This document shows, in pieces, positions 428-59,144 of a stretch of DNA of 64,000 nucleotides. The notes below the pieces were generated by a model, which was not told where the DNA came from, ran no database searches, and worked only from the letters and a program-made list of their open reading frames with translations. Location of the stretch: NCBI RefSeq assembly GCF_003569045.1, contig NZ_BFCB01000003.1, positions 1,178,001-1,242,000 of the forward strand, read 5' to 3'. Within the stretch, counting starts at the first letter, position 1, and each line of letters begins with the position of its first letter. Made by a program: the position numbers and the translations under genes. Source of the DNA: Aggregatilinea lenta. GTDB taxonomy: Bacteria; Chloroflexota; Anaerolineae; Aggregatilineales; Aggregatilineaceae.

Positions 428-1009
428 CTAACCGGCCTCCGGGTTTTGCTGGAGCCGCCCCAGATCTTGCCGGGCGCGCTCGATAAGCGCCGTCTCCTGC
501 GGGAAAAGGTCCGGGAACGATTCGTAAATGTCTTCGGCGTCGCGGAACTGGCCGTCTTCCTCGTAAAGCTCGCCGAGGCGCAGGTAGATCATGCCCAGGT
601 ACGGGTTGCTTCGTCCGATATTTTCCTGGACAAACTGCTCGGCCTCGTCGATCGTGAGCCGGTCATAGACAATTTCGTCAATTGCTTTCTGGGCGCGCTC
701 GGCGTCGTCCGGCACCGGAAAGGCCCGATCGTTGCTCCAGATGCGCTGAACGTAGGTATAGCCGCCGTGCTGGACGTACTGCCCCTCGGCGTCGTCGTAG
801 GTTTCATAGCCCAGCAGCGCATCCAGGTAGCGCCCATCCGCATAGCTGGCATTGGCGTCTTCCATGTAGGTGGACGACAGCCGGTAGGCGTCCCACCACG
901 CCAGGACATAGGTAAACACGAAGACCAGGATCGCGCCTGCGATCAGGATCAGGCTGCGGGAGGGCTTGAAGGAATGGGCTGGGGCTTGTGTTTGGGTTTG
1001 GGCAGCCAT
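428..1009 (-). CDS. Membrane-anchored TPR-like protein of unknown function
   Basis: 193 residues, no named family recognised. One membrane segment (about residues 18-40) follows a Gln/Thr/Ala-rich N-terminus. The remainder is acidic and helical, with TPR-like spacing (ADGRYLDALLGYE near 57-69; LGELYEEDGQFRDAEDIYESF near 148-167). It starts four bases after the MalG-type permease stops, so it is surely cotranscribed and probably coupled. The tail should face outside if the N-terminus is inside, which would fit an accessory role for the binding protein or permeases. That role is inference only; it could also be an unrelated tetratricopeptide adaptor. Confidence 0.75.
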   Translation of the reverse strand: MAAQTQTQAPAHSFKPSRSLILIAGAILVFVFTYVLAWWDAYRLSSTYMEDANASYADGRYLDALLGYETYDDAEGQYVQHGGYTYVQRIWSNDRAFPVPDDAERAQKAIDEIVYDRLTIDEAEQFVQENIGRSNPYLGMIYLRLGELYEEDGQFRDAEDIYESFPDLFPQETALIERARQDLGRLQQNPEAG

Positions 1010-46446: not shown

Positions 46447-47937
46447 CTAGTCTCCCGCCTCAGTTGCTTCGGCAGTCGCCGCACCGGACGGTTCGGCGGG
46501 CATGCCTTGAGGCGCGCCGTTCGTATCCTGCGGCGCTTCGCCCGTCGCTTCCACACTGGGGGCGCTTTCCGGTGCTCCGCCCGGCAGCCCGGCATCGGCG
46601 GTTCCGTCATTGACGACGCGCGACTCCGGCCCGATCTCGTCATCGGTGATGACGCCGCCCGCGATGAGCTTCTCATTGACCATCGCCTGAAGCTCCTCCA
46701 GATCGGAGAGCATCTCATAGGCGCCGTGCCACTGGGTGTAGTCCGGCCCTTGCATCCACGCGCCGAACTTCGCCGTCCGGCCCCAGTGGTGCCACAGCTC
46801 GAAGTACACGAAGTCGATCTCCTCATCAAACGGCGTTGAGGTCAGCAGATCGTTGTCTTTGAGCGGCTGCAGCATCGCTGTACTCTCGTTGACCCACTGG
46901 TTGATCGATTCCACCAGCGCGTCGCCATCGGTGTAGAAGTCGTCAATGTAGTTCGCGTTGTGGCACTCCGAGCACACATTCTGCATGCGGACCTTGTTGT
47001 CTTCCCAACTGGGCCGCCGCTCGCTGACCGGCGAGAACAGATACCACGTCAGGCGCTCGCCGACGTCATGCGTGGTCCCTGCCGCGCCGAAGCCACTCAT
47101 GTGGCACACCGCACAGGTGGCCGCCGGGAAATCCTCGACCGTCAGCGTGCCGGGTTCCGCGTCCCAGTTCCACGTGTCACCGCTGGTCATGTAGGCGATG
47201 CCATGCGGCGATTCCTGGTAAATCTCCCACTGGGGATGGTCCGGCCCGATGTGGCAGGCGTTGCACGTTTCGGGCTTGCGCGCCTGTTCCAGGCTAAATT
47301 CATGGCGCAGGTGGCATTTCTGGCACTGCCCCACCGATCCATCCTCGGCGGGCGCGCCAACGCTATGGCAGCTTTCGCACGCGAAACGCGTCACCGCAGG
47401 GCCTTCGATAGCGAACAGGGCGTTGCGCATCTCGTTCGGCGCGGGCTGCGCTTCGGGGATGGAATGATAAAGCGCAAACTCCTCCTCGGTCAGCCCTTCC
47501 AGGCCGACCATCGCAACATAGGCGGGAATCGAGTGGCGGGATTGATTGTACTGCGCCACTTCAGCCTGATGGCATGTCTCGCACTTGGCAGCCGTCGGCG
47601 AGCGCAGCACAAACGTGCCCTCGTGCTCGACCGCGCCGGGGTAGTCTTCGTCTACCTCGTGGCAGTCTTCGCACTCGACCTCCGCCGCCGCCATCGAACT
47701 CATGCCGTACTGCTGCACGATGCCCGGCGTGGTGCGGCGGTGGCACTCGACGCACTCGTTATCACTGCTGGCCAGCGCATCGACACGCGCCGGTTCCTCG
47801 CCTTCGGTCTCACCCACCGCGATCGCCACCAGGATGAGGCCAAGCACGACGATGACTCCGGCTGCACCAAGAATCAGGATGCGCCCTGTAGAGAGCCAAT
47901 TTCGGTTGGTGGGAGCAGGCGGATTTATATCAGACAT
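46447..47937 (-). CDS. Membrane-anchored octaheme cytochrome c, HAO/ONR-like
   Basis: 496 residues. A single membrane anchor (about 19-42) is followed by eight CxxCH heme sites with cysteines at 62/65, 89/92, 119/122, 187/190, 205/208, 225/228, 275/278 and 322/325. Number and spacing, plus later WHHWGRTAKFGAW and YTQWHGAYE motifs, suit the hydroxylamine oxidoreductase-like octaheme superfamily. Members oxidise hydroxylamine or hydrazine or reduce nitrite/hydroxylamine. I cannot identify the cross-linking tyrosine of oxidative HAO, so a reductive role is favoured. The last ~70 residues are Glu/Ala/Pro-rich and low-complexity. Confidence 0.88.
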   Translation of the reverse strand: MSDINPPAPTNRNWLSTGRILILGAAGVIVVLGLILVAIAVGETEGEEPARVDALASSDNECVECHRRTTPGIVQQYGMSSMAAAEVECEDCHEVDEDYPGAVEHEGTFVLRSPTAAKCETCHQAEVAQYNQSRHSIPAYVAMVGLEGLTEEEFALYHSIPEAQPAPNEMRNALFAIEGPAVTRFACESCHSVGAPAEDGSVGQCQKCHLRHEFSLEQARKPETCNACHIGPDHPQWEIYQESPHGIAYMTSGDTWNWDAEPGTLTVEDFPAATCAVCHMSGFGAAGTTHDVGERLTWYLFSPVSERRPSWEDNKVRMQNVCSECHNANYIDDFYTDGDALVESINQWVNESTAMLQPLKDNDLLTSTPFDEEIDFVYFELWHHWGRTAKFGAWMQGPDYTQWHGAYEMLSDLEELQAMVNEKLIAGGVITDDEIGPESRVVNDGTADAGLPGGAPESAPSVEATGEAPQDTNGAPQGMPAEPSGAATAEATEAGD

Positions 47938-49934: not shown

Positions 49935-52658
49935 ATGCGAAAAATAATGTTGTATGTCAACGACGTGCCCAGGACGCTCGTCGTTGATCCGGCAGCCAAC
50001 TTGATGGATGTGCTTCGAAGGCAGCTTTTGCTGACCGGCACCAAGGACGGTTGCGAAGACGGTCACTGTGGCGCGTGTGCCGTTCTGGTGGATGGGAAGT
50101 ATACGCTGGCGTGCGTTACCAAGATGAGCAAGATCCCGGATGGTGCCCATGTTTTGACCGTCGAGGGTATCGGCACGCCGGACAAGCTGCATCCCATTCA
50201 GAAGGCTTTTATTCTGCACGGGGCCGCCCAGTGTGGCTTCTGCTCGCCGGGTTTCGTGGTGTCGGCCAAGGCCCTGCTCGATGCTAATCCCGCACCGACA
50301 CGGGCAGAGGTACGTGACTGGTTCCAGAAACGGCACAACGTCTGCCGCTGCAACGGGTACAAGCCGTATGTCGATGCGGTGATGGATGCTGCCAGGGTGC
50401 TGCGCGGCGAGATGCCGGAGACGGCGCTTGAGTATAAGCCGGAAAACGGCAGAGTATGGGGAACCAACCATCCGCGCCCAACCGCCGTTGCCAAGGTGAC
50501 GGGCACCCTGGATTATGGGTCTGACCTCGGTCTGAAGATGCCTCCCGACACGCTGCGGCTGGCGTTGGTTCAGGCTAAGGTGTCACATGCCAATATCCTG
50601 TCGATTGACACGTCCGAAGCCGAGACCATGCCGGGTGTGCATGCCGTGCTGACTCATAAGGACGTCAAGGGCAAGAACCGTATCACGGGGCTGATCACGT
50701 TCCCGACGAACAAGGGCGACGGGTGGGATCGTCCGATCCTTTGCGATGAGAAAGTCTTCCAGTACGGCGACGCGATCGCCATCGTGTGCGCCGATACCGA
50801 GGACCACGCTCGCGCCGCCGCCGAAAAAGTGGTCGTTGAGCTGGAGGAACTCCCGGCTTATATGAGCGCCCCGGCAGCCATGGCCGAGGATGCAATCGAA
50901 ATCCACCCCGGTACCCCCAACGTATACTACGAGCAGCGCATCGCCAAGGGCGAAGAGACCGGTCCTCTGATGGAATCGGCAGGGTACGTGGTTGAGGATG
51001 AATTCTATCTTCAGCGCCAACCCCATCTGACCGTCGAGCCGGACGTGGGTCTTGCCTACTATGATGAAGAAGGTCGGCTGACGATTCACTCGAAGAGCAT
51101 CGGCCTTTATCTGCATCATGCGATGATTGCACCGGGCCTGGGCATCGAGCCGGAGAAGCTGCGCCTCGTGCAGAACCCGGCGGGCGCAACCTTCGGCTAC
51201 AAGTTCAGCCCAACGATGGAAGCCTTGTTGGGTGTTGCGGCGATGGCAACCGGACGTTCGGTTTTCCTGCGCTACAACTACCAGCAGCACATGACCTACA
51301 CCGGTAAGCGGTCGCCGTTCTTTGTCAAGATGAAGTTCGGGGCGGATAAAGATGGCAAGCTGATCGCCATGGAAAGCGATTGGTCGGTTGACCACGGCCC
51401 GTACTCCGAGTTTGGCGACCTGCTGACGCTGCGCGGCGCGCAGTTCATGGGGGCCGGTTACGACATCCCCAATATCCGGGGACTTGGACGCACGGTCGCG
51501 ACGAACCACGTCTGGGGATCAGCCTTCCGCGCTTATGGCTCGCCGCAGGCGTTCCTGGCGTCGGAGAGCCTGATGGACGAACTGGCCGAAAAGATGGGCG
51601 TGGACCCGTTCGAGCTGCGGTATAAGAACATCTACCGGCCCGGCGCGACAACCCCTACCGGGCAGGCACCGGAAGTCTACAGCTTCGAGGAGATGTTCGA
51701 CCTTCTGCGTCCGAAGTATCAGGCGGCGCTCCAACGCGCCGAAGAAAACTCCACTGACGCCCACAAGAAGGGTGTCGGTATTTCGCTCGGCATCTACGGT
51801 TGTGGTTTGGATGGGCCGGACGGCGCCGAGGCCTGGGCTGAGCTGACGGAAGCGGGCGTCACGATCTACAATAGCTGGCAGGATCACGGTCAGGGCGCGG
51901 ACATGGGCACGCTGGGCACGGCGCACGAGGCGCTGCTGCCGCTTGAGATCGGCCCCGAACAGATCAAGCTGGTGATGAATGACACGGCCAGGGTGCCCAA
52001 CAGTGGGCCATCCGGCGGCAGTCGCAGCCAGGTGATGACCGGCAACGCGATCCGGGTTGCCTGCGAAAATCTGATGGAGGGCATGTGCAAGCCGGATGGC
52101 AGCTTCCGCACCTATCAGGAGATGGTGGCCGAGGGCTTGCCGCTGCGCTACGTGGGCAAGTGGACGGCGTCCATGGCGAGCAACTGTGATGAGAACGCAC
52201 AGGGGGCGCCGTTTGCCATCTATATGTATGGCGTGTTCATGGCGGAAGTAGACGTCGAGGTGAAGACGGGCAAGACCACGGTCGATAAATTCACCATCGT
52301 CGCGGACGTGGGCAAGATCAATAACAAGCTGGTCGTGGATGGCCAGATCTATGGCGGCATCGCCCAGGGTATCGGGCTGGCGCTATCGGAAGATTTCGAA
52401 GACATCAAGAAGCACTCGACGATGCTGGGTGCGGGGGTGCCCTTCGCCAGGGATATCCCGGATGACATCGAGATCTTGTATGTGGAAACGCCCCGCCAAA
52501 ACGGCCCCTTCGGGGCGGCTGGCGTGGGCGAGCTGCCGTTGACCTCGCCCCATGTGGCGATCGTCAATGCCATCAAGAACGCGACCGGCGTGCGCATCAC
52601 GCACCTTCCGGCGCGCCCCGAAAAGGTGTTGGCGGGGCTTAACAACGGCAGCCACTAG
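49935..52658 (+). CDS. mop: Molybdenum aldehyde oxidoreductase, single-chain Mop type
   Basis: 907 residues from ATG 49935 (GGAGGA upstream), the same length as Desulfovibrio gigas Mop. Two [2Fe-2S] domains with cysteines 40, 45, 48, 60 and 100, 103, 137, 139, identical in number to D. gigas. The molybdopterin-cytosine-dinucleotide domains follow (about 190-900; FGAAGVGELPL holds the likely catalytic Glu866). It oxidises aldehydes to carboxylic acids with water, in the cytoplasm. It opens a tight cluster of redox, radical SAM and CoA ligase genes, so the acid may be activated to a CoA ester by the ligase at 57816. A terminator-like hairpin follows it. Confidence 0.95.
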   Translation: MRKIMLYVNDVPRTLVVDPAANLMDVLRRQLLLTGTKDGCEDGHCGACAVLVDGKYTLACVTKMSKIPDGAHVLTVEGIGTPDKLHPIQKAFILHGAAQCGFCSPGFVVSAKALLDANPAPTRAEVRDWFQKRHNVCRCNGYKPYVDAVMDAARVLRGEMPETALEYKPENGRVWGTNHPRPTAVAKVTGTLDYGSDLGLKMPPDTLRLALVQAKVSHANILSIDTSEAETMPGVHAVLTHKDVKGKNRITGLITFPTNKGDGWDRPILCDEKVFQYGDAIAIVCADTEDHARAAAEKVVVELEELPAYMSAPAAMAEDAIEIHPGTPNVYYEQRIAKGEETGPLMESAGYVVEDEFYLQRQPHLTVEPDVGLAYYDEEGRLTIHSKSIGLYLHHAMIAPGLGIEPEKLRLVQNPAGATFGYKFSPTMEALLGVAAMATGRSVFLRYNYQQHMTYTGKRSPFFVKMKFGADKDGKLIAMESDWSVDHGPYSEFGDLLTLRGAQFMGAGYDIPNIRGLGRTVATNHVWGSAFRAYGSPQAFLASESLMDELAEKMGVDPFELRYKNIYRPGATTPTGQAPEVYSFEEMFDLLRPKYQAALQRAEENSTDAHKKGVGISLGIYGCGLDGPDGAEAWAELTEAGVTIYNSWQDHGQGADMGTLGTAHEALLPLEIGPEQIKLVMNDTARVPNSGPSGGSRSQVMTGNAIRVACENLMEGMCKPDGSFRTYQEMVAEGLPLRYVGKWTASMASNCDENAQGAPFAIYMYGVFMAEVDVEVKTGKTTVDKFTIVADVGKINNKLVVDGQIYGGIAQGIGLALSEDFEDIKKHSTMLGAGVPFARDIPDDIEILYVETPRQNGPFGAAGVGELPLTSPHVAIVNAIKNATGVRITHLPARPEKVLAGLNNGSH

Positions 52659-52692
52659 GTTTCGTGAGTTAGAGGTTCAGTGTCACCATGCG

Positions 52693-52726
52693 GTGAGCGG
52701 CACAACGCGTTGTGCCGCTCACTTTT
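52693..52726 (+). terminator. Rho-independent terminator/attenuator between mop and the dicluster gene
   Basis: GTGAGCGGCACAA (52693-52705) pairs with TTGTGCCGCTCAC (52710-52722), four-base loop, followed by TTTT. All criteria of an intrinsic terminator are met, 17 bases before the next start codon. Confidence 0.85.
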
Positions 52727-52743
52727 AACAGGCGATATGCCCT

Positions 52744-55062
52744 ATGATTAACCTGACCGATCAAAAAAAGCTGCGCGAACTGGAAGCCCAGTGCATTCAA
52801 GACCACGCTCCCCCCTGCCGGGCCGCTTGCCCGGTGCACGTTGATGTGCGCGCTCTGCTCGCCGCCGCAGGCCAGGGTGACTTTGCCGGGGCTTATCGGA
52901 TTTTGGCCAGAGCCGTACCGTTCCCTGGCGTGATCGGCCATGTGTGCGATCAACCGTGCCGGAGCGTTTGTACGCGAGGCGAAGTCGGAGAACCGATTGA
53001 GATCGCGGCCCTGGAGCGCGCGTGCGTCGAACTGAACCCCAGCGGCCTCGAACCCTTGAAAAGACTACCGGCTCGCGGGCAGCGAGTGGCCGTCGTCGGG
53101 GCGGGACTCAGCGGCCTGACCGTGGCCTTTGATCTGGCGCGCAAGGGCTACGATGTGACTGTGTTTGAAGCGACGGATCGCCTGGGTGGTAGTCTGTGGC
53201 AGGTGCCGGAGCTGGATTTGCCGCGTGATGTCATTCTGGCTGATCTGGCTGTCCTGGATACCTTGGGTCTGGACATACGCCTGAATACACCTGTCTCCGG
53301 CGAGGGCGCGCTGGAAGCCCTGCTGGAGACCTACGCGGCGGTCTATATCGGCACCGGCCTTGCCTCGGCAGCAGAAAAAGCGTTCTTTGGGGGTGAAGCC
53401 GGACATAACCCGCGAACCTTCCAGACCAGCCGGGCGGGCGTGTTTCTCGGCGGCAGTTTGCTGCGTCCGGCGGCCAGCCGCTCCTACATCACCGCGATTT
53501 CTGACGGACGGCGCGCGGCCATCTCGATCGATCGCTACGCGCAGCGTGTCTCGCTTGAAGCCTCGCGCACGAACGAAGGACCTTATACCACACAGCTTTA
53601 CACCAACACCGAGGAGGTTACCCCGTCGGGCAGCGTGCCGGTTGCGGATCCCCGGCGTGGTTACGACGCAGACGCCGCCATTCAGGAAGCGCGGCGCTGC
53701 CTGCAATGCGAGTGCATGGAATGCGTGAAGGTGTGCGAGTACCTCGCGCACTATGGGGGTTATCCCAGGCGCTACGTGCGGGAAATATACAACAATCTGT
53801 CCATCGTGATGGGCGAGCGCCACGCCAACCGGCTGATCAACTCGTGCGCGTTGTGTGGTTTGTGTGCGGAGGTGTGCCCAACCGATCTGGATATGGGCGC
53901 GATCTGCGCGGAGGCGCGCCGGGTCATGGTGTCGCAGAACCGGATGCCAGCCTCGGCGCACGAATTCGCGCTGCGCGACATGGCTTTTAGCCAGAGCGAC
54001 CAGTGCACCGTGGTGCGTCACCAACCCGACTTCGCCGCCAGCCGCTACGTGTTTTTTCCGGGTTGCCAGTTGAGCGGCTCCGATCCGCAGCACGTCGCCG
54101 CCGTCTATGGCTACCTGCGATCAACTTTGTCCGGCGGCGTGGGTCTGTGGCTGGATTGCTGCGGCGCGCCAGCCGAGTGGGCGGGACGCACGGACCTGAT
54201 GCAGACATCGTTGGAAGCGTTCCAGGCCCAGTACGACGCGCTGGGAAGCCCCACACTGGTGTTAGCCTGTTCGACCTGCTATCAGGTGTTCAAGACCCAT
54301 TTACCAGACGTAGCGCTGGTATCGCTGTGGGAAGTCTTCGATGAGCACGGGCTGCCAGAAACCAGGCCCGCGAGTCGGGTGGGCGTCGTGTCCATCCATG
54401 ACCCCTGTACCACACGCCACGAACCGCAGATGCATGACAGTGTCCGGCGTATCGTGGGGCAGTTGGGGTATGCTATTGACGAACTGGCCTTGAGCCGCGA
54501 GCGGACCACCTGTTGCAGTTATGGCGGGCTGATGTGGTTTGCTAACCATGAGCTGGCCCAGAACGTCATCCGGCGGCGCGTCACCGAAAATCAGGCCGAC
54601 TACGTCACTTACTGCGCTATGTGCCGCGACCTTTTTGCCTCGCAGGGCAAACGCACGTTGCACGTACTCGACCTTATATTTGGCGAGGAACAGGCTTCAA
54701 GGCCGGGCTATTCGCAGCGCCGTGAAAACCGCGCACGGCTCAAACGTACCGTGCTTAACGCGTTATGGGGAGAAACGGTGACCGGACAGGAAGACTACGA
54801 ACGGCTCAACGTGACGATGAGCGCGGATGTTTTGGCGCGTTTGGAGGAGCGCTTGATTCTCCGGTCGGACGTGGAACAGGTGATTGCCTACGCCGAACGC
54901 ACCGGCAATTGGCTGTTGAACCCAGAAACCGGCCACCGGCTGGCCCATTACCGGCCCGCGACGGTGACGTACTGGGTTGAATATGCCCCGGAAGAAAGCG
55001 CCCATGTCGTTTTTAATGCCTATTGCCATCGCATGGACGTGGCGGAGGATGTAAAGCCGTGA
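52744..55062 (+). CDS. FAD- and Fe-S-dependent oxidoreductase with fused dicluster and CCG domains
   Basis: 772 residues in three parts. 1-95: GltD/DPYD-like Fe-S segment (CRAACPVHVDV, CDQPCRSVCTRG). 110-310: FAD-binding fold (RVAVVGAGLSGLTVAFDLA) with a shortened second Rossmann part. 318-420: two-cluster ferredoxin (CLQCECMECVKVCEY, CALCGLCAEVCP). 430-640: heterodisulfide-reductase-like CCG domains (FFPGCQLSGSDPQH, LDCCGAPAEW; HDPCTTRHEP, TTCCSYGGLMW, CAMCRD). It probably moves electrons from Mop to a disulfide or pyridine nucleotide. NCBI names a similar family pyridine nucleotide-disulfide oxidoreductase/dicluster-binding protein, from memory. Overlaps the next gene by four bases. Confidence 0.88.
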   Translation: MINLTDQKKLRELEAQCIQDHAPPCRAACPVHVDVRALLAAAGQGDFAGAYRILARAVPFPGVIGHVCDQPCRSVCTRGEVGEPIEIAALERACVELNPSGLEPLKRLPARGQRVAVVGAGLSGLTVAFDLARKGYDVTVFEATDRLGGSLWQVPELDLPRDVILADLAVLDTLGLDIRLNTPVSGEGALEALLETYAAVYIGTGLASAAEKAFFGGEAGHNPRTFQTSRAGVFLGGSLLRPAASRSYITAISDGRRAAISIDRYAQRVSLEASRTNEGPYTTQLYTNTEEVTPSGSVPVADPRRGYDADAAIQEARRCLQCECMECVKVCEYLAHYGGYPRRYVREIYNNLSIVMGERHANRLINSCALCGLCAEVCPTDLDMGAICAEARRVMVSQNRMPASAHEFALRDMAFSQSDQCTVVRHQPDFAASRYVFFPGCQLSGSDPQHVAAVYGYLRSTLSGGVGLWLDCCGAPAEWAGRTDLMQTSLEAFQAQYDALGSPTLVLACSTCYQVFKTHLPDVALVSLWEVFDEHGLPETRPASRVGVVSIHDPCTTRHEPQMHDSVRRIVGQLGYAIDELALSRERTTCCSYGGLMWFANHELAQNVIRRRVTENQADYVTYCAMCRDLFASQGKRTLHVLDLIFGEEQASRPGYSQRRENRARLKRTVLNALWGETVTGQEDYERLNVTMSADVLARLEERLILRSDVEQVIAYAERTGNWLLNPETGHRLAHYRPATVTYWVEYAPEESAHVVFNAYCHRMDVAEDVKP

Positions 55063-55271
55063 CCACTCATGCCGATCTGGCGGACTCTCATGACTGGGTC
55101 TGTGGCCGGTGCAACTGTGCGCTGGAAATCAAAAAGGTCAATGTCTCATATATGGGCAGCAGCTTCCCCGTCGATCTGCCCATCTGCCCCCAATGCGGGC
55201 AGGTATTTGTACCCGAAGCGCTGGCTACGGGCAAAATGGCCCAGGTGGAGCAGACCCTGGAAGACAAATGA
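55059..55271 (+). CDS. Small CxxC redox/zinc protein (DVU_1557-like)
   Basis: 70 residues from GTG 55059, which overlaps the stop of the previous gene (GTGA). Two CxxC pairs (CGRC near 14-17 and CPQC near 46-49) in a short beta-rich sequence would bind zinc or iron or form disulfides. It lies exactly where Desulfovibrio-type clusters carry a small protein named the DVU_1557 family. Overlaps the methyltransferase start by four bases. No function known. Confidence 0.8.
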   Translation: MTTHADLADSHDWVCGRCNCALEIKKVNVSYMGSSFPVDLPICPQCGQVFVPEALATGKMAQVEQTLEDK

Positions 55272-55996
55272 GCCACGACTGCTGCCGTGTCTATGAACAC
55301 GACGCCACGCGCACGATCACGGGCAATACGATTCGCCCAGGTGGGATCGCGCTGACTGAGGTTGCGCTGGGTCATTGCACGCTGCTGTCAGGAACCCGCG
55401 TGCTGGATGTGGGCTGTGGCGCTGCGGCCACCATCGAGTATTTGACCGATACCCGGCGTGTTCGTGCCATCGGGCTGGACCTCTCGTGGGCGCTGTTGTC
55501 GGCAAGCTGCCAACGCCGCCGCGACTTACCGGTTACACAGGCCAATGGCGAGAACTTGCCCTTTCCGAGTGGTTCGTTTGATATCTTACTGGCCGAGTGC
55601 TGCCTGTCGCTTATGGATGACGGTGATCGTGCGTTGGCCGAATTCGCTCGTGTCCTGCGCGCTGGCGGAACCCTGATCCTCAGCGATATATATGCGCGTA
55701 ATAGCGATGAAATCCCAATCGCGCGTCGTCTGCCGCTGGCATGTTGTTTGAGCAAGGCCCTGTCGCTCGAGTGGCTTCAAACCCGGCTCATCCACCACCA
55801 TCTGAGGATGACGCTGTGGGAAGACCATACGGCAGCTCTCAACAGCCTCGCCGCGCAGATCATTTTCGCTCATGGGTCACTGGAGCACTTTTGGAGAACG
55901 CTGGTGGGTGATAGCCTGAACGCACACGCGTTGACCGGAGTGACAGCGCGCCTCAAGCCGGGTTACTTCTTGTTGTTAGCCCAAAAAGAAACGTGA
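55268..55996 (+). CDS. trsM: SAM-dependent methyltransferase (DVU_1556/TrsM-like)
   Basis: 242 residues from ATG 55268. Class I methyltransferase fold: RVLDVGCGAAATIEYL (motif I near 44-58), IGLDLSWALLSAS, ENLPFPSGSFDILLAE, then LRAGGTLILSDIY. The N-terminus has a His/Cys pair (MSHDCCRVYEHDA) and residues ECCLS and ACCLS further on, unusual cysteine richness. Start and stop overlap neighbours, so it belongs to this operon. Substrate unknown; gene symbol is from memory of the NCBI family and should be checked. Confidence 0.8.
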   Translation: MSHDCCRVYEHDATRTITGNTIRPGGIALTEVALGHCTLLSGTRVLDVGCGAAATIEYLTDTRRVRAIGLDLSWALLSASCQRRRDLPVTQANGENLPFPSGSFDILLAECCLSLMDDGDRALAEFARVLRAGGTLILSDIYARNSDEIPIARRLPLACCLSKALSLEWLQTRLIHHHLRMTLWEDHTAALNSLAAQIIFAHGSLEHFWRTLVGDSLNAHALTGVTARLKPGYFLLLAQKET

Positions 55997-56018
55997 CAAT
56001 CGGGGAGAATAAGCATCC

Positions 56019-56462
56019 ATGGACGATCTGATGCGTATGCTGAAACTCAAACAGCAGGGGTTTTATTGCAGCCAGATCCTGGTGAGTATGGGGCTAGACG
56101 ATCTGGGAAAAACCAATCTGGATGTAGTCCGGGCCGCACGTGGATTGGCCGGAGGACTGGGTTTTGCTGGTGAGACCTGTGGGGCACTGACCGGTGGGGC
56201 CTGTTTGCTAGGATTGCATTTCGGTAAAGGCACAGTGGAGGAAAAAGAGGATCCACGCCTGGATCCGATGGTGCAGGCGCTGGTCAGTTGGTTTAAGGAC
56301 GAATACGGGCAGCAGTACGGCGGCATTCGGTGTAACGACATCCTGGCGAATGATCCATCCAATATGCCTGCGCGCTGTCCGGGCATGGTGGTAGGGACCT
56401 ATCAGAAGGTGCAGGCATTGCTGGCTGAGGCTGATTCTGAATTTGGTGATCAGGAGTTATGA
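56019..56462 (+). CDS. C_GCAxxG_C_C-family protein
   Basis: 147 residues. Recognised by GFYCSQILVSMGLDDLG near 13-29, GLAGGLGFAGETCGALTGG near 43-62, IRCNDIL and ARCPGMV. Four to five conserved cysteines probably hold a redox cofactor or make disulfides. It follows the methyltransferase by 22 bases and overlaps the radical SAM start by four bases. The family often accompanies redox enzymes and is biochemically uncharacterised to my knowledge. Confidence 0.88.
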   Translation: MDDLMRMLKLKQQGFYCSQILVSMGLDDLGKTNLDVVRAARGLAGGLGFAGETCGALTGGACLLGLHFGKGTVEEKEDPRLDPMVQALVSWFKDEYGQQYGGIRCNDILANDPSNMPARCPGMVVGTYQKVQALLAEADSEFGDQEL

Positions 56463-57865
56463 CCTCCAGTAGGGACCTTGCCGGAGCCAAAACTGAGAGC
56501 GTTTGTCCTGAATGTCTGGCGCGTATTTCCGCAGAGCGCGTCGTACATGGCGACAATGTTTATCTCAAGAAGCGTTGTCCGCAACATGGGGAATTCGAGA
56601 CGATTATCTGGCGCGGTGATCCAGCCTATGTGACCTGGAGCCATCCTAAAACGCCGTCATACCCGCAAACTCCTTTCACGCCGGTTGGCCAGGGCTGCCC
56701 CTTTGACTGTGGATTGTGCCCCGAACATCGTCAGCAAACCTGCACAGCGTTATTGGAAGTCACACAGCGCTGCAATTTACGGTGCCCGGTCTGTTTTGCC
56801 GACGCGGGCAGCCGCGACCCGGATCCCTCTCTGGACGTGATCGCCGGGTGGTACCAGCGCTTGCTCGACGCCGGAGGCCCCTATAACGTTCAGCTCTCCG
56901 GTGGCGAACCGACCCTGCGCGATGATTTGCCCGATATTGTGGCGCTCGGACGGTCGCGGGGATTTGGCTTCATCCAGATTAACACGAATGGGTTGCGCCT
57001 GGCTGACGATCCGGACTATGTCGCAGCGCTAAAACAGGCGGGATTATCTTCGGTGTTTTTGCAGTTCGATGGCACAGACGACAGCATTTACCAGAACCTG
57101 CGCGGCGCCAGCCTGCTGTCGAAAAAAATCGCCGCCATCGACCACTGCGCGCAGCACCAGATCGGCGTGATCCTGGTGCCAACCCTCGTGCCCGGCGTGA
57201 ACGTGTCGGCTGTCGGCGCGATCATCGATTTCGCCCTCAACCGCATACCGGCAGTGCGGGGTGTTCATTTTCAACCCGTCAGCTACTTTGGCCGTTACCC
57301 ACGCATGCCCGGCGACGATCAGCGTATTACTATTCCGGAGGTCATCCGCGCCATCGAAACCCAGACCGGTGGCCGTATCCCACGGACTGTTTTTGAACCG
57401 CCCGGATGCGAAAATGCGCGCTGTTCGTTTCATGGCAATTTTGTGCTGATGCCGGACGGTCGTTTACACTCCTGGTCGCAGCATGCCCCGACTCAATCAG
57501 GCTGCTGCCAACCGGGCAGCGCTGCCGACGGGGCGGCGCGAGCGCGCAGCTTCGTTGCGACCAGGTGGATCTCACCGGACGCTATCCAGCCACTGTCAAA
57601 GGGGCCGAGCCTGGGACAGTGGGATGTGGTTCTGGAACGCACTCGCACGCACACGTTCACTATCTCTGGCATGGCATTTCAGGACGCCTGGACACTCGAT
57701 CTGGAACGCCTGCGCGACTGCTGCATTCATACCGTCAGCCCTGATGGCCGGATCATTCCCTTCTGTGCATATAACCTGACCAGCCGCGAGGGGCAAGCGC
57801 TGTATCGAGGTCGCCATGAATCTGACGCCGCTCGAACCCTGGATCGCCACCAAGATCGGAGTTGA
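56459..57865 (+). CDS. trsS: Radical SAM protein of the TrsS type
   Basis: 468 residues starting at ATGA shared with the previous stop. N-terminal Cys pair (SVCPECLARI, Cys16/19) and Cys40; then GCPFDCGLCPEH with Cys80, 84, 87 (a C-x3-C-x2-C); and the canonical CNLRCPVCF with Cys105, 109, 112. The core barrel includes NVQLSGGEPTLRDDLPDI. A late region (ENARCSFHGNF, ERLRDCCIHTV, IPFCAYNLTS) carries more cysteines. NCBI labels this family a radical SAM (seleno)protein because some members carry selenocysteine; here the frame is open and uses Cys. The substrate may be a small protein or cofactor made for Mop. Confidence 0.85.
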   Translation: MTSSRDLAGAKTESVCPECLARISAERVVHGDNVYLKKRCPQHGEFETIIWRGDPAYVTWSHPKTPSYPQTPFTPVGQGCPFDCGLCPEHRQQTCTALLEVTQRCNLRCPVCFADAGSRDPDPSLDVIAGWYQRLLDAGGPYNVQLSGGEPTLRDDLPDIVALGRSRGFGFIQINTNGLRLADDPDYVAALKQAGLSSVFLQFDGTDDSIYQNLRGASLLSKKIAAIDHCAQHQIGVILVPTLVPGVNVSAVGAIIDFALNRIPAVRGVHFQPVSYFGRYPRMPGDDQRITIPEVIRAIETQTGGRIPRTVFEPPGCENARCSFHGNFVLMPDGRLHSWSQHAPTQSGCCQPGSAADGAARARSFVATRWISPDAIQPLSKGPSLGQWDVVLERTRTHTFTISGMAFQDAWTLDLERLRDCCIHTVSPDGRIIPFCAYNLTSREGQALYRGRHESDAARTLDRHQDRS

Positions 57866-59144
57866 GCCAACGCGGCTTGCCCGGTCTGACCTGGAGGCAT
57901 ATCAGCTCGCGAAATTGCAGGAAACGATCCAGATTCTGCGGGAGAAAAGCCCGTTTTATCGCAACCATCTGGCAGACTATCCCACCGAGCTAACCAGTCT
58001 GGATGACCTGGCGACGTTTCCGTTTACCACCGCGAACGATCTGCAGCGAGAGCCTTTGCAGTTTCTGTGCGTCTCACAGAGCGACGTCCGGCGTGTGGTC
58101 ACCTTGCAGAGTTCAGGAACCACCGGATCGCCGAAGCGTCTCTTCTTCTCCCACGCCGATCAAGAACTCACGCTCGATTTCTTCCATATCGGGATGTCCA
58201 CCTTTGCGAACCCTGGCGATCGCGTGCTCATTCTACTACCTGCGGAACGCTCCGGCAGCGTGGGCGATCTGCTGGCCCTTGCGCTCGGACGCCGGGGTGC
58301 ACATGGCATCCGGCACGGCCTTGTGCGCGATGTTGCGCATACACTCGACACATTGTTCAGCGAGGGCGCGAATTCTCTGGTAGGTGTGCCAACCCAGGTG
58401 CTGGCGCTGGCCCGATCAGTGGAAGCCCGGCGTTTCCCGATCCCACCCGTGCAGACGGCGCTGCTGACGATGGATCACGTCCCTGTGAGTATCGTAAACC
58501 ATCTGGAGCAGGTGTGGCCCTGTACGGTTTACAATCACTACGGCATGACGGAAATGGGGCTGGGCGGAGGGGTTGAGTGCGAAGCCCGGCGCGGCTACCA
58601 TTGGCGCGAAGCAGACTTATACATTGAGATCGTCGACCCACGTTCGGGCATGCCGGTTGCCGAGGGGGAGCTGGGTGAGATTGTGTTCACGACGCTGACC
58701 CGTCAGGCAATGCCTCTCCTGCGTTATCGAACAGGCGATATGAGCTGCGTTATACCCGATCCGTGCCCCTGTGGAACGTGTCTGAAAACGCTGGCGCGTG
58801 TCCATAGCCGCATCCGGAACTCTGTTCCGATCGGCACCGCATCCTACCTTGCGATGGCCGATCTGGACGAAATCCTTTTTCCCGTTGATCCCGTTCTGGA
58901 TTTCACCGCTTCGCTGGAAACGGCGGGCGGTCAAAACCACCTCAAGCTGCATGTTCATCTCACCGAGACACCGCACGAACACGCTCTGACAATGATACGC
59001 GCGGCCCTTGACGCGATTCCGGCCATTCGTTCCGGTCAACTGGGCCTCACCCTGACTGCCGAAGACGGTTGTGGTAACCTGTCACCCAACCACGGGAAGC
59101 GAGCTATCAGGTTCCATCCAGAAGATCCGGGCGCTGGTCAGTAA
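57816..59144 (+). CDS. PaaK-like AMP-dependent CoA ligase (DVU_1553-like)
   Basis: 442 residues; the start lies 50 bases inside the radical SAM frame. Features: AMP-binding signature SSGTTGSPKRLFFS near 98-111, VYNHYGMTEMGLGG near 240-253, GELGEIVFTTLTRQAMPLLRYRTGDM split here as GELGEIVFTTL and MPLLRYRTGDM, then the shorter C-terminal domain with a CxCGxC (CPCGTC). It activates a carboxylic acid to its CoA ester with ATP. In this operon it could handle the acid formed by Mop. The frame runs in tight coupling from the preceding genes; this is the last gene of the cluster. Confidence 0.85.
   Translation: MNLTPLEPWIATKIGVEPTRLARSDLEAYQLAKLQETIQILREKSPFYRNHLADYPTELTSLDDLATFPFTTANDLQREPLQFLCVSQSDVRRVVTLQSSGTTGSPKRLFFSHADQELTLDFFHIGMSTFANPGDRVLILLPAERSGSVGDLLALALGRRGAHGIRHGLVRDVAHTLDTLFSEGANSLVGVPTQVLALARSVEARRFPIPPVQTALLTMDHVPVSIVNHLEQVWPCTVYNHYGMTEMGLGGGVECEARRGYHWREADLYIEIVDPRSGMPVAEGELGEIVFTTLTRQAMPLLRYRTGDMSCVIPDPCPCGTCLKTLARVHSRIRNSVPIGTASYLAMADLDEILFPVDPVLDFTASLETAGGQNHLKLHVHLTETPHEHALTMIRAALDAIPAIRSGQLGLTLTAEDGCGNLSPNHGKRAIRFHPEDPGAGQ

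What the first reader, a model, noticed from the sequence alone, without database searches (positions are those of the whole stretch)
49935..59144. Mop aldehyde oxidoreductase cluster with radical SAM, methyltransferase, C_GCAxxG_C_C and CoA ligase genes: best candidate for an undescribed system
Seven genes in the order Mop, dicluster oxidoreductase, CxxC mini-protein, methyltransferase, C_GCAxxG_C_C protein, radical SAM protein and PaaK-like ligase match, from memory, the Desulfovibrio vulgaris DVU_1553-1559 type neighbourhood, but here in a Chloroflexota-like genome. Most are coupled by ATGA/GTGA overlaps. The genes suggest oxidation of an aldehyde, CoA activation of the acid, and a radical SAM/methyltransferase step that may build or repair a cofactor or modify a cysteine protein. 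No published function for the set is known to me.
Basis: partly seen in the sequence, partly recalled or inferred. Interest (0 to 1): 0.85.

Follow-up and report, generated by a model that had tools for sequence, protein, structure and literature searches.

The report
Aldehyde oxidoreductase with mystery carrier module
Seven neighbouring genes combine a well-known molybdenum enzyme that oxidises aldehydes with a widely shared but unexplained set of genes, one of which makes a tiny protein that nearly always ends in the same amino acids and may be a carrier on which an unknown helper molecule is built.

Summary
All seven genes are present and each passes the cut-off of its own NCBIfam model, the DVU_1553-1559/TrsS set. 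Curators know the set; my literature searches found no function for it.

Among 80 TrsS-selected loci plus the window, 53 of 81 hold all seven, and 43 of 49 loci of 18 kb or more. In 301 genomes of the window's phylum, TrsS, mini-protein and ligase occur in the same two.

New findings: the zinc-ribbon-like mini-protein ends in Lys-stop in 74 of 74 separate copies, 70 in Glu-Asp-Lys, with free synonymous codons; one degenerate fused copy does not. Outside complete sets it occurs both in Mop loci lacking TrsS and in TrsS loci lacking Mop. TrsS has the fold and metal sites of tetraether lipid synthase. The dicluster protein has two HdrB-type motifs.

Best reading (inferred, 0.35): ligase, TrsS and methyltransferase build a group on the mini-protein's C-terminus, which the dicluster protein and Mop use. 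A plain aldehyde-to-acyl-CoA pathway seems less likely.

The parts
49935..52658 (+). Mop: molybdenum aldehyde oxidoreductase, 907 aa (two 2Fe-2S domains, two MoCo-binding domains)
   Evidence: NF045668 1671 bits over cut-off 1100; Pfam domains; phmmer 1469 bits to 1sij and 1395 to 1dgj, solved aldehyde oxidoreductases; GGAGG 5 bp before the ATG
52744..55062 (+). DIC: FAD/dicluster protein, 772 aa: GltD-like FAD domain that appears to lack the NAD(P) part, 4Fe-4S dicluster, two HdrB-type CCG motifs, unnamed C-terminal domain
   Evidence: NF045663 1076 bits; conserved Cys and motifs; missing NAD(P) part judged by reading the sequence
54064..54279 (+). first CCG motif of DIC (residues 441-512)
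   Evidence: 59 of 63 DIC proteins over 650 aa have two CCG motifs
54406..54624 (+). second CCG motif of DIC (residues 555-627)
54811..55062 (+). C-terminal domain of DIC (about 80 aa); a similar separate small protein lies beside the mini-protein in L035 and L110, and a similar stretch precedes the mini-protein in one frame in L102
   Evidence: similarity by eye; no Pfam hit over a cut-off
55059..55271 (+). mini: zinc-ribbon-like 70-aa protein (DVU_1557, DUF7479), proposed carrier
   Evidence: NF045645 104 bits, PF24292; GTG start overlapping the DIC stop; alignment A4
55257..55268 (+). codons of the conserved C-terminal Leu-Glu-Asp-Lys
   Evidence: 74 of 74 separate copies end in Lys-stop, 70 in EDK
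55268..55996 (+). MT: UbiE-like SAM-dependent methyltransferase (DVU_1556)
   Evidence: NF045667 235 bits; Cys108 of the seed sequence present in 71 of 71
56019..56462 (+). CGC: C_GCAxxG_C_C protein (DVU_1555), four conserved Cys
   Evidence: NF045669 172 bits; C17 in 76, C54, C105 and C120 in 77 of 77; model pLDDT 94.9, best Foldseek match split-Soret cytochrome c 1h21 (prob 1.00, TMq 0.63, E 0.072)
56459..57865 (+). TrsS: radical SAM protein of the tetraether-lipid-synthase fold
   Evidence: NF045646 701 bits over cut-off 490; model pLDDT 89.7; VIA Z 44.5 over 400 residues to 7tom; metal-ligand residues conserved
57816..59144 (+). LIG: PaaK-like adenylate-forming ligase (DVU_1553); start uncertain, overlaps TrsS by 50 bp
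   Evidence: NF045666 469 bits; PaaK structures are the best PDB matches; C-terminal Lys-Arg in 70 and 67 of 78

Best explanation
The locus holds two modules joined by the mini-protein. Mop oxidises an aldehyde and passes electrons to DIC, whose FAD, 4Fe-4S and HdrB-type clusters suit exchange with a thiol/disulfide-like or protein-bound partner. The mini-protein is that partner, or its carrier. The PaaK-like ligase adenylates a carboxylate and joins it to the mini-protein (most likely at the conserved C-terminal lysine). TrsS then does radical chemistry on the attached group, MT methylates it, and CGC is an iron-sulfur redox helper. Shown here: gene content, order, co-occurrence, the fixed C-terminus, the TrsS fold and metal sites, and the CCG motifs of DIC. 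Inferred: everything about reactions, substrate and attachment.
For: (1) C-terminus: 74 of 74 separate mini ORFs end in Lys-stop and 70 in EDK. Codons are free (AAG 41/AAA 33; GAG 43/GAA 31; stops TAG 25, TGA 25, TAA 24), also where MT does not follow, so selection is on the protein. Control: in the other six families the commonest last residue is at most 25 of 66. The nine mini ORFs of the extra loci also end in Lys (L120 repeats L035 and L124 repeats L064, so seven are new), as do L136 and the copy fused to DIC in L103. (2) The mini-protein is the shared part. Without TrsS in the locus it lies with Mop-DIC in L133, L127, L126 (with CGC), L123 (with a ligase) and L131 (with MT, CGC, ligase). 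Without Mop in the locus it lies with TrsS and ligase in L035, L068, L104 and L110; L102 is the same but starts at a contig end. (3) 48 genomes with a TrsS locus: mini found in 48 (46 over cut-off), ligase 47, DIC 46, MT 46 (45 over cut-off), Mop 45. G264, with a divergent Mop and no TrsS over cut-off, has none of mini, MT, DIC or ligase at the limits used. (4) 301-genome phylum sample: TrsS, mini (G121's copy below cut-off) and ligase in the same 2, G000 and G121. (5) The core occurs without Mo-hydroxylase: G345 has a TrsS locus (L110), mini, MT, ligase and DIC, and no MoCoBD_1 hit; its DIC seems to keep a GltD-like NAD(P) domain (by reading the sequence). (6) Ligase has the adenylation motif and a conserved C-terminal Lys. 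(7) Precedents: LysW, a small Zn protein loaded at its C-terminal residue (PMC10433800, passages); Hdr-like proteins with a lipoyl carrier, dedicated ligase and radical SAM pair (PMC10332631, passages).
Against: No modification has been seen; a fixed C-terminus could be a docking tail. One mini-like domain, fused to DIC beside Mop in L132 (49 bits, below cut-off), does not end in Lys; that genome has a second, ordinary mini (L136). PaaK-like ligases normally make CoA thioesters. The mini profile found no LysW in the PDB, mainly weak zinc-finger and LIM hits. The role of MT is not explained, and MT is missing from G337 and G339. Other gaps: ligase in G322, Mop and DIC in G121 and G338. Mop without DIC or mini occurs in L122 and at the first Mop of L128. 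L131 and L123 have a ligase with Mop and no TrsS. Apparent separation of Mop from TrsS in L130/L094 is only a contig break inside the mini gene and is not used. The 80 loci were chosen by TrsS, so in-locus and genome counts are not an unbiased sample.
Confidence: 0.35

Rival explanations
1. Catabolic pathway: Mop oxidises an aldehyde to an acid, the PaaK-like ligase makes its CoA ester, DIC takes the electrons; TrsS, MT and CGC serve a further substrate-specific step.
For: Mop is close to biochemically known aldehyde oxidoreductases; DVU_1559 is listed under ethanol metabolism in a proteomics table (PMC10920352, passage); the ligase's best PDB matches are phenylacetate-CoA ligases; L131 and L123 keep Mop and ligase without TrsS in the locus; L104 has an enoyl-CoA hydratase-like and other fatty-acid-type genes upstream (by eye).
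Against: Ligase is adjacent to TrsS in 72 of 76 loci and stays with TrsS where Mop is elsewhere in L104 and L101 (L101 starts at a contig end). Core genes occur in G345, which has no MoCoBD_1 hit. Of 19 neighbour clusters shared by four or more loci, I annotated 10: cofactor genes, a sigma-54 regulator, an ABC ATPase, a cysteine desulfurase, a DUF364 protein, one unknown, and no clear catabolic enzyme; the other 9 were not annotated.
Confidence: 0.2
2. Maturation of Mop: TrsS, MT, CGC and ligase modify the molybdenum cofactor or the Mop protein, together with XdhC and a MocA-type transferase.
For: Operons often carry an XdhC-type maturation factor (33 of 81 loci), a MocA-HD fusion (34), an alpha-ribazole-phosphatase-like protein (28) and a MoeA-like protein (19). 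A cysteine-desulfurase-like gene (cluster c6) lies close before TrsS, with c13 between them, in L049, L050, L060 and L068. Some XdhC-type protein is found in 48 of 49 genomes, over the family cut-off in 22.
Against: Core genes occur in a genome without MoCoBD_1 hits (G345). A divergent Mop lives without them (G264). From memory, crystals of the D. gigas enzyme show only molybdopterin cytosine dinucleotide and two 2Fe-2S clusters; whether D. gigas has TrsS was not tested. I saw no XdhC or MocA beside the window's cluster.
Confidence: 0.2
3. The set makes a diffusible lipid- or quinone-like electron carrier for Mop-DIC, and the mini-protein is a rubredoxin-like electron carrier.
For: TrsS is closest to a lipid-coupling enzyme; MT is UbiE-like; the mini-protein has two CxxC pairs (C5 and C8 in 73, C33 and C36 in 74 of 74).
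Against: TrsS is shorter than the bacterial Tes-like proteins sampled (median about 449, mostly match regions, against 514 residues), and Tyr459 of archaeal Tes is Val, Thr or Ile in 75 of 79. A rubredoxin-like role does not explain the conserved C-terminal Lys.
Confidence: 0.15

Closest known systems
NCBIfam DVU_1553-1559 / TrsS gene set
   Same: All seven window proteins pass the curated cut-offs; order as in most related loci.
   Different: I saw no XdhC, MocA-HD or MoeA-like gene beside the window cluster, which many relatives have.
Tetraether lipid synthase Tes (GDGT-MAS, MJ0619)
   Same: Whole fold (Z 44.5, 400 aligned residues); rubredoxin-type C-X2-C-X20-C-X2-H, N-cluster Cys3-His, CX3CX2C, and the labile-Met position of the C-cluster all conserved (ligands of Tes from PMC9433317, passages).
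   Different: Scores 360 bits against the Tes cut-off of 450; Tes Tyr459 not conserved; sits with a ligase, methyltransferase and mini-protein.
LysW/ArgW amino-group carrier proteins
   Same: Small protein with two CxxC pairs and a conserved residue at the very end.
   Different: Ends in LEDK, not EDWGE; the acidic Glu is replaced by Lys; partner here is a PaaK-like ligase; no LysW hit with the mini profile.
sHdr-LbpA lipoyl-carrier system with sLpl(AB) and LipS1/LipS2
   Same: Architecture: Hdr-like proteins, small carrier, dedicated adenylating ligase, radical SAM enzyme, FAD protein (PMC10332631, passages).
   Different: The proposed carrier is a zinc-ribbon-like mini-protein, the ligase is PF00501 not PF03099 (PF03099), the radical SAM enzyme is Tes-like, and Mop is the usual partner.
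Mop aldehyde oxidoreductases of D. gigas (1sij) and D. desulfuricans (1dgj)
   Same: End-to-end homologues, 1469 and 1395 bits (source organisms recalled).
   Different: Mop itself is ordinary; the novelty is in what it travels with.

Membership tests
NCBIfam DVU_1553-1559 / TrsS set | each protein passes its curated score cut-off | tested here: met
   seven of seven
NCBIfam DVU_1553-1559 / TrsS set | genes lie together | tested here: met
   49935-59144, order as in most relatives
Molybdenum aldehyde oxidoreductase (Mop) | two 2Fe-2S domains, hammerhead domain, two MoCo-binding domains, close match to solved enzymes | tested here: met
Tetraether lipid synthase (Tes) | fold and four metal-binding sites | tested here: met
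   (residues present; metals not tested)
Tetraether lipid synthase (Tes) | curated NCBIfam cut-off (450 bits) | tested here: not met
   360 bits
Tetraether lipid synthase (Tes) | Tyr459, reported as completely conserved in archaeal homologues | tested here: not met
   V 54, T 12, I 9 of 79; the window has Thr425
Tetraether lipid synthase (Tes) | coupling of lipid chains | not testable with these tools
   needs biochemistry
LysW/ArgW carrier protein | four (or three) Zn-binding Cys in a small protein | tested here: met
   four conserved Cys; metal not tested
LysW/ArgW carrier protein | C-terminal EDWGE | tested here: not met
   LEDK instead
LysW/ArgW carrier protein | ATP-grasp ligase LysX/ArgX as partner | not tested
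   no search for LysX was made
sHdr-LbpA lipoyl system | GcvH-like lipoyl carrier | tested here: not met
   the small protein matches DUF7479 only
sHdr-LbpA lipoyl system | PF03099 ligase | tested here: not met
   the ligase matches PF00501 only
HdrB/HdrD-type proteins | CCG cluster-binding motifs | tested here: met
   two in the window protein, two in 59 of 63 relatives; clusters not tested
PaaK-type adenylate-forming ligase | AMP-binding domain and C-terminal catalytic Lys | tested here: met
   PF00501; Lys in 70 of 78; its role as catalytic Lys is inferred

The most novel reading that the evidence does not exclude
The mini-protein carries a new, lipoyl-like organosulfur redox group on its C-terminal lysine. 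The PaaK-like ligase attaches an acyl chain. TrsS inserts sulfur from its C-terminal iron-sulfur cluster into an unreactive C-H bond, using the carbon-sulfur step already shown for the tetraether lipid synthase. MT finishes the group where present; in a variant operon (L068; L136 with L101) MT is absent and a cysteine desulfurase stands near TrsS, as if to replace the spent sulfur. DIC, through its HdrB-type clusters, exchanges electrons between this group and either Mop (aldehyde) or NAD(P)H (the Mop-less form in L110). This would be a new protein-bound redox cofactor with its own assembly line.
Probability: 0.13. Interest if true: 0.92.

Novelty: new variant of a known kind. Interest (0 to 1): 0.62.

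Why it matters
Mop is a long-studied molybdenum enzyme, yet in the TrsS-selected genomes examined here it sits beside six genes whose job is unknown. The nearly invariant C-terminus of the mini-protein turns a vague puzzle into one mass-spectrometry measurement. If a group is built there, it would be a new kind of carrier protein and possibly a new redox cofactor, and would give a job to a bacterial branch of the tetraether-synthase fold. D. vulgaris Hildenborough, after whose genes the models are named, has a barcoded mutant library (PMC10102598, abstract), so the question is directly testable.

Tried and rejected
Plain chance neighbourhood: rejected. C-terminal LEDK as a by-product of an overlapping start or ribosome site: rejected, because codons and stop codons vary and the tail stays when the next gene differs.

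Selenocysteine as the key to TrsS: in 79 TrsS sequences the only in-frame TGA codons lie beyond the conserved region, past the gene end as far as I can tell, so nothing was learned about Sec.

Lipid-chain coupling by TrsS in this genome: not supported (Tyr459 position, length, curated score), not excluded. The labile Met of Tes is present in all 79 TrsS, but the Tes paper reports that the M439A variant stays active (PMC9433317), so this says little on mechanism.

Mini-protein against the PDB: 54 sequences at E up to 10; the best are zinc-finger (E 1e-4, each stretch weak) and LIM proteins, and MasE at E 0.035; treated as generic zinc-ribbon similarity. No LysW or rubredoxin is named in the list; this absence excludes nothing.

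CGC: the profile matches split-Soret cytochrome c at E 9e-4 (domain E 0.016) and the model matches it best (Foldseek E 0.072, prob 1.00). I use it only as a hint of an iron-sulfur site.

Distance correlations: highest DIC-TrsS 0.81 and DIC-ligase 0.80, lowest Mop-MT 0.43, Mop-ligase 0.44, Mop-TrsS 0.50 among the Mop pairs quoted. Shared ancestry confounds them, so they carry little weight.

L130/L094 looked like a Mop-DIC-mini unit apart from TrsS; L094's contig begins inside a mini gene and L130's ends just after one, so I take it as one operon cut by a contig break and dropped it. L124 proved to be the same place as L064.

Fitness paper on D. vulgaris (PMC10102598, passages): its chlorate result concerns the tungsten enzyme DVU1179; the terms I searched for genes 1553, 1554, 1556 and 1557 gave no gene mention. 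Plasmid copies: none in PLSDB at E 1e-60.

Rows dropped: 10 of 28 Tes-like sequences had stops in the stretch taken and were left out. Three of the 80 TrsS loci (L096, L097, L107) were not in the 79-sequence TrsS alignment. In one search only the best 30 matches became loci. For some searches, 46 of the 80 named loci were taken to genome level.

Full report
WHAT IS THERE. The seven genes are real and complete. NCBIfam has a model for each and all seven pass their cut-offs. Pfam adds little beyond domains: the mini-protein is DUF7479, TrsS has a 'HMPTM zinc ribbon' and a radical SAM domain, the ligase has an AMP-binding domain. Starts were refined by reading the sequence: mini 55059 (GTG overlapping the stop of DIC) and MT 55268 (ATGA).

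HOW WIDESPREAD. By record title these come from Anaerolineae and other Chloroflexi, Bacillota (Sporomusa, Acetobacterium, Desulfosporosinus, Petroclostridium), Deltaproteobacteria and other groups. The order Mop-DIC-mini-MT-CGC-TrsS-ligase is the usual one. All seven are in 53 of 81 loci and in 43 of 49 loci of 18 kb or more, window included. Of the 20 loci without Mop, 15 have their first operon gene within 600 bp of the locus start, where the contig ends. Relatives often add XdhC (33), MocA-HD (34), a histidine phosphatase like alpha-ribazole phosphatase (28) and a MoeA-like protein (19 of 81).

LESS BIASED CHECK. The loci were chosen by TrsS, so I also used a sample of 301 genomes of the window's phylum. 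TrsS over cut-off: 2 (G000, G121). Mini: the same 2, G121 below cut-off. Ligase over cut-off: the same 2. Mop over cut-off: 2, G000 and G264. So TrsS, mini and ligase go together, and Mop less strictly: G121 has TrsS without Mop, and G264 has a divergent Mop (1122 bits) without TrsS, mini, MT, DIC or ligase at the limits used.

GENOME LEVEL. In 48 genomes with a TrsS locus: mini in 48 (46 over cut-off), ligase 47 (missing G322), DIC 46 (missing G121, G338), MT 46 at E 1e-30, 45 over cut-off (missing G337, G339), Mop over cut-off 45 (missing G121, G338, G345). G345 has no MoCoBD_1 match at all. Its completeness is not known, so this is suggestive, not final.

TWO MODULES AND A LINK. Extra Mop genes in TrsS genomes show which genes can part. 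Mop-DIC-mini without TrsS in the locus: L133 and L127 (two Mop-DIC pairs, one mini). DIC-Mop-CGC-mini: L126. Mop-DIC-mini with a ligase: L123. Mop-DIC-mini-MT-CGC-ligase with TrsS elsewhere: L131. Mop without DIC or mini: L122 and the first Mop of L128. L043 has a further Mop-DIC-mini set beside its complete set. The reverse, mini with TrsS and ligase and no Mop in the locus: L035, L068, L104, L110, and L102 at a contig end. In Desulfovibrio sp. An276 (G337), DIC-mini-CGC-cysteine desulfurase runs to a contig end (L136), c13-TrsS-ligase starts another contig (L101), and Mop-DIC lies elsewhere (L132). The mini-protein is thus on both sides. This is what one expects of something made by one module and used by the other, though a subunit needed by both would look the same. 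L130/L094 was dropped as a contig break.

THE C-TERMINUS. Mini-proteins have a median pairwise identity of 47%, yet 74 of 74 separate copies end in Lys-stop, 70 in Glu-Asp-Lys. Glu at position 58 of the 60-residue seed is also 74 of 74. Codons vary freely and the three stop codons are used about equally. The commonest last residue of the other six families reaches at most 25 of 66. The copy fused to DIC in L103 also ends in LEDK. The exception is a degenerate mini-like domain fused to DIC in L132 (49 bits, below cut-off), which ends otherwise. This is the strongest new observation here. It says that the exact end matters; it does not say why.

TRSS. The AlphaFold model (pLDDT 89.7) matches the tetraether lipid synthase over nearly its whole length: Z 44.5, 400 residues, 2.4 A, next family 21.7; Foldseek E 4e-43. 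In 79 TrsS sequences the rubredoxin-type ligands (C16 in 78; C19, C40, H43 in 79), the N-cluster (C80, C84, C87, H90), the radical SAM Cys (C105, C109, C112) and the C-cluster (C322, M405, C421 in 79; C436 in 78) are conserved. Assignment of the C-cluster Cys as ligands is inferred. In Tes the reaction goes through a bond between substrate carbon and a cluster sulfur (PMC9433317, passages). Tyr459 of archaeal Tes is Val, Thr or Ile in 75 of 79. So TrsS has the hardware of a Tes-type enzyme, but is not a Tes by score.

DIC, LIGASE, MT, CGC. DIC has a GltD-like FAD domain, a dicluster domain and two CCG motifs of the HdrB type (window 441-512 and 555-627; 59 of 63 relatives over 650 aa have two). 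In L110 the DIC relative has a longer GltD part that reads as a full NAD(P) domain (by eye). One reading is that Mop took over from NAD(P)H as electron donor. The ligase has an adenylation domain and the C-terminal Lys (70 of 78). MT has an invariant Cys108 (71 of 71). CGC has four conserved Cys and a model resembling split-Soret cytochrome c.

MECHANISM. My best reading, at 0.35, is a carrier: ligase, TrsS, MT and CGC build a group on the mini-protein, and DIC with Mop uses it. Two systems show that each element is possible: LysW is a small zinc protein loaded at its last residue (PMC10433800), and in sulfur oxidisers Hdr-like proteins work with a lipoyl carrier made by a dedicated ligase and radical SAM pair (PMC10332631). 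Neither is a homologous system. The organosulfur version is bolder still (0.13).

WHAT WOULD CHANGE MY MIND. An unmodified native mini-protein, or Mop-DIC activity without TrsS and ligase, ends the carrier reading.

LITERATURE. TrsS appears in one selenoproteome table (PMC13188914, passages). DVU_1559 appears in two proteomics tables (PMC10920352 and PMC11784015, passages); DVU1558 occurs once in PMC3114432 (search listing only). The 'TrsM' in PMC11588087 is named among enzymes that methylate cobalamin (passage); I take it as a different protein. No functional study was found in the searches, all in an open-access library only.

Noticed in passing
54811-55062; L035 10465-10725; L110 8729-8998; L102 212-685: The C-terminal domain of DIC looks like a mobile unit of about 80 aa: a similar separate small protein in L035 and L110, and a similar stretch in frame before the mini-protein in L102. 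No Pfam model passes its cut-off.
   Followed up: partly
L060 9636-9950; L101 167-553; also L049, L050, L068: A small protein of unknown family (104 and 128 aa in the two read) lies between a cysteine-desulfurase-like gene and TrsS in Sporomusa and L068, and directly before TrsS in a Desulfovibrio; no Pfam or NCBIfam hit for the L060 copy.
   Followed up: no
L068; L136 (G337:C42) with L101: A variant operon, DIC-mini-CGC-cysteine desulfurase-c13-TrsS-ligase, lacks Mop and MT; in G337 it is split over two contigs and their order is inferred.
   Followed up: partly
28 of 81 loci, e.g. L050 12724-13350: An alpha-ribazole-phosphatase-like histidine phosphatase often lies near the MocA-HD fusion; its role in a molybdenum operon is unexplained.
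   Followed up: no
L119 (G264), L134, L135: Divergent Mop-like enzymes live without DIC, mini or TrsS in the locus and have a cysteine-desulfurase-like gene nearby.
   Followed up: partly
L007-L034 (18 of 28 usable): Tes-like proteins of this phylum keep the C-cluster Cys but have mostly Gln (12 of 18) where archaeal Tes and TrsS have the labile Met.
   Followed up: partly
46447-47937 (-): A 496-aa protein with many Cys-x-x-Cys-His haem motifs, a probable multihaem cytochrome, lies upstream on the other strand.
   Followed up: no
G000:C2:1562974-1563966: The window's genome has its closest XdhC-type protein on another contig, below the cut-off for the aldehyde oxidoreductase type (180 of 350 bits).
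   Followed up: no
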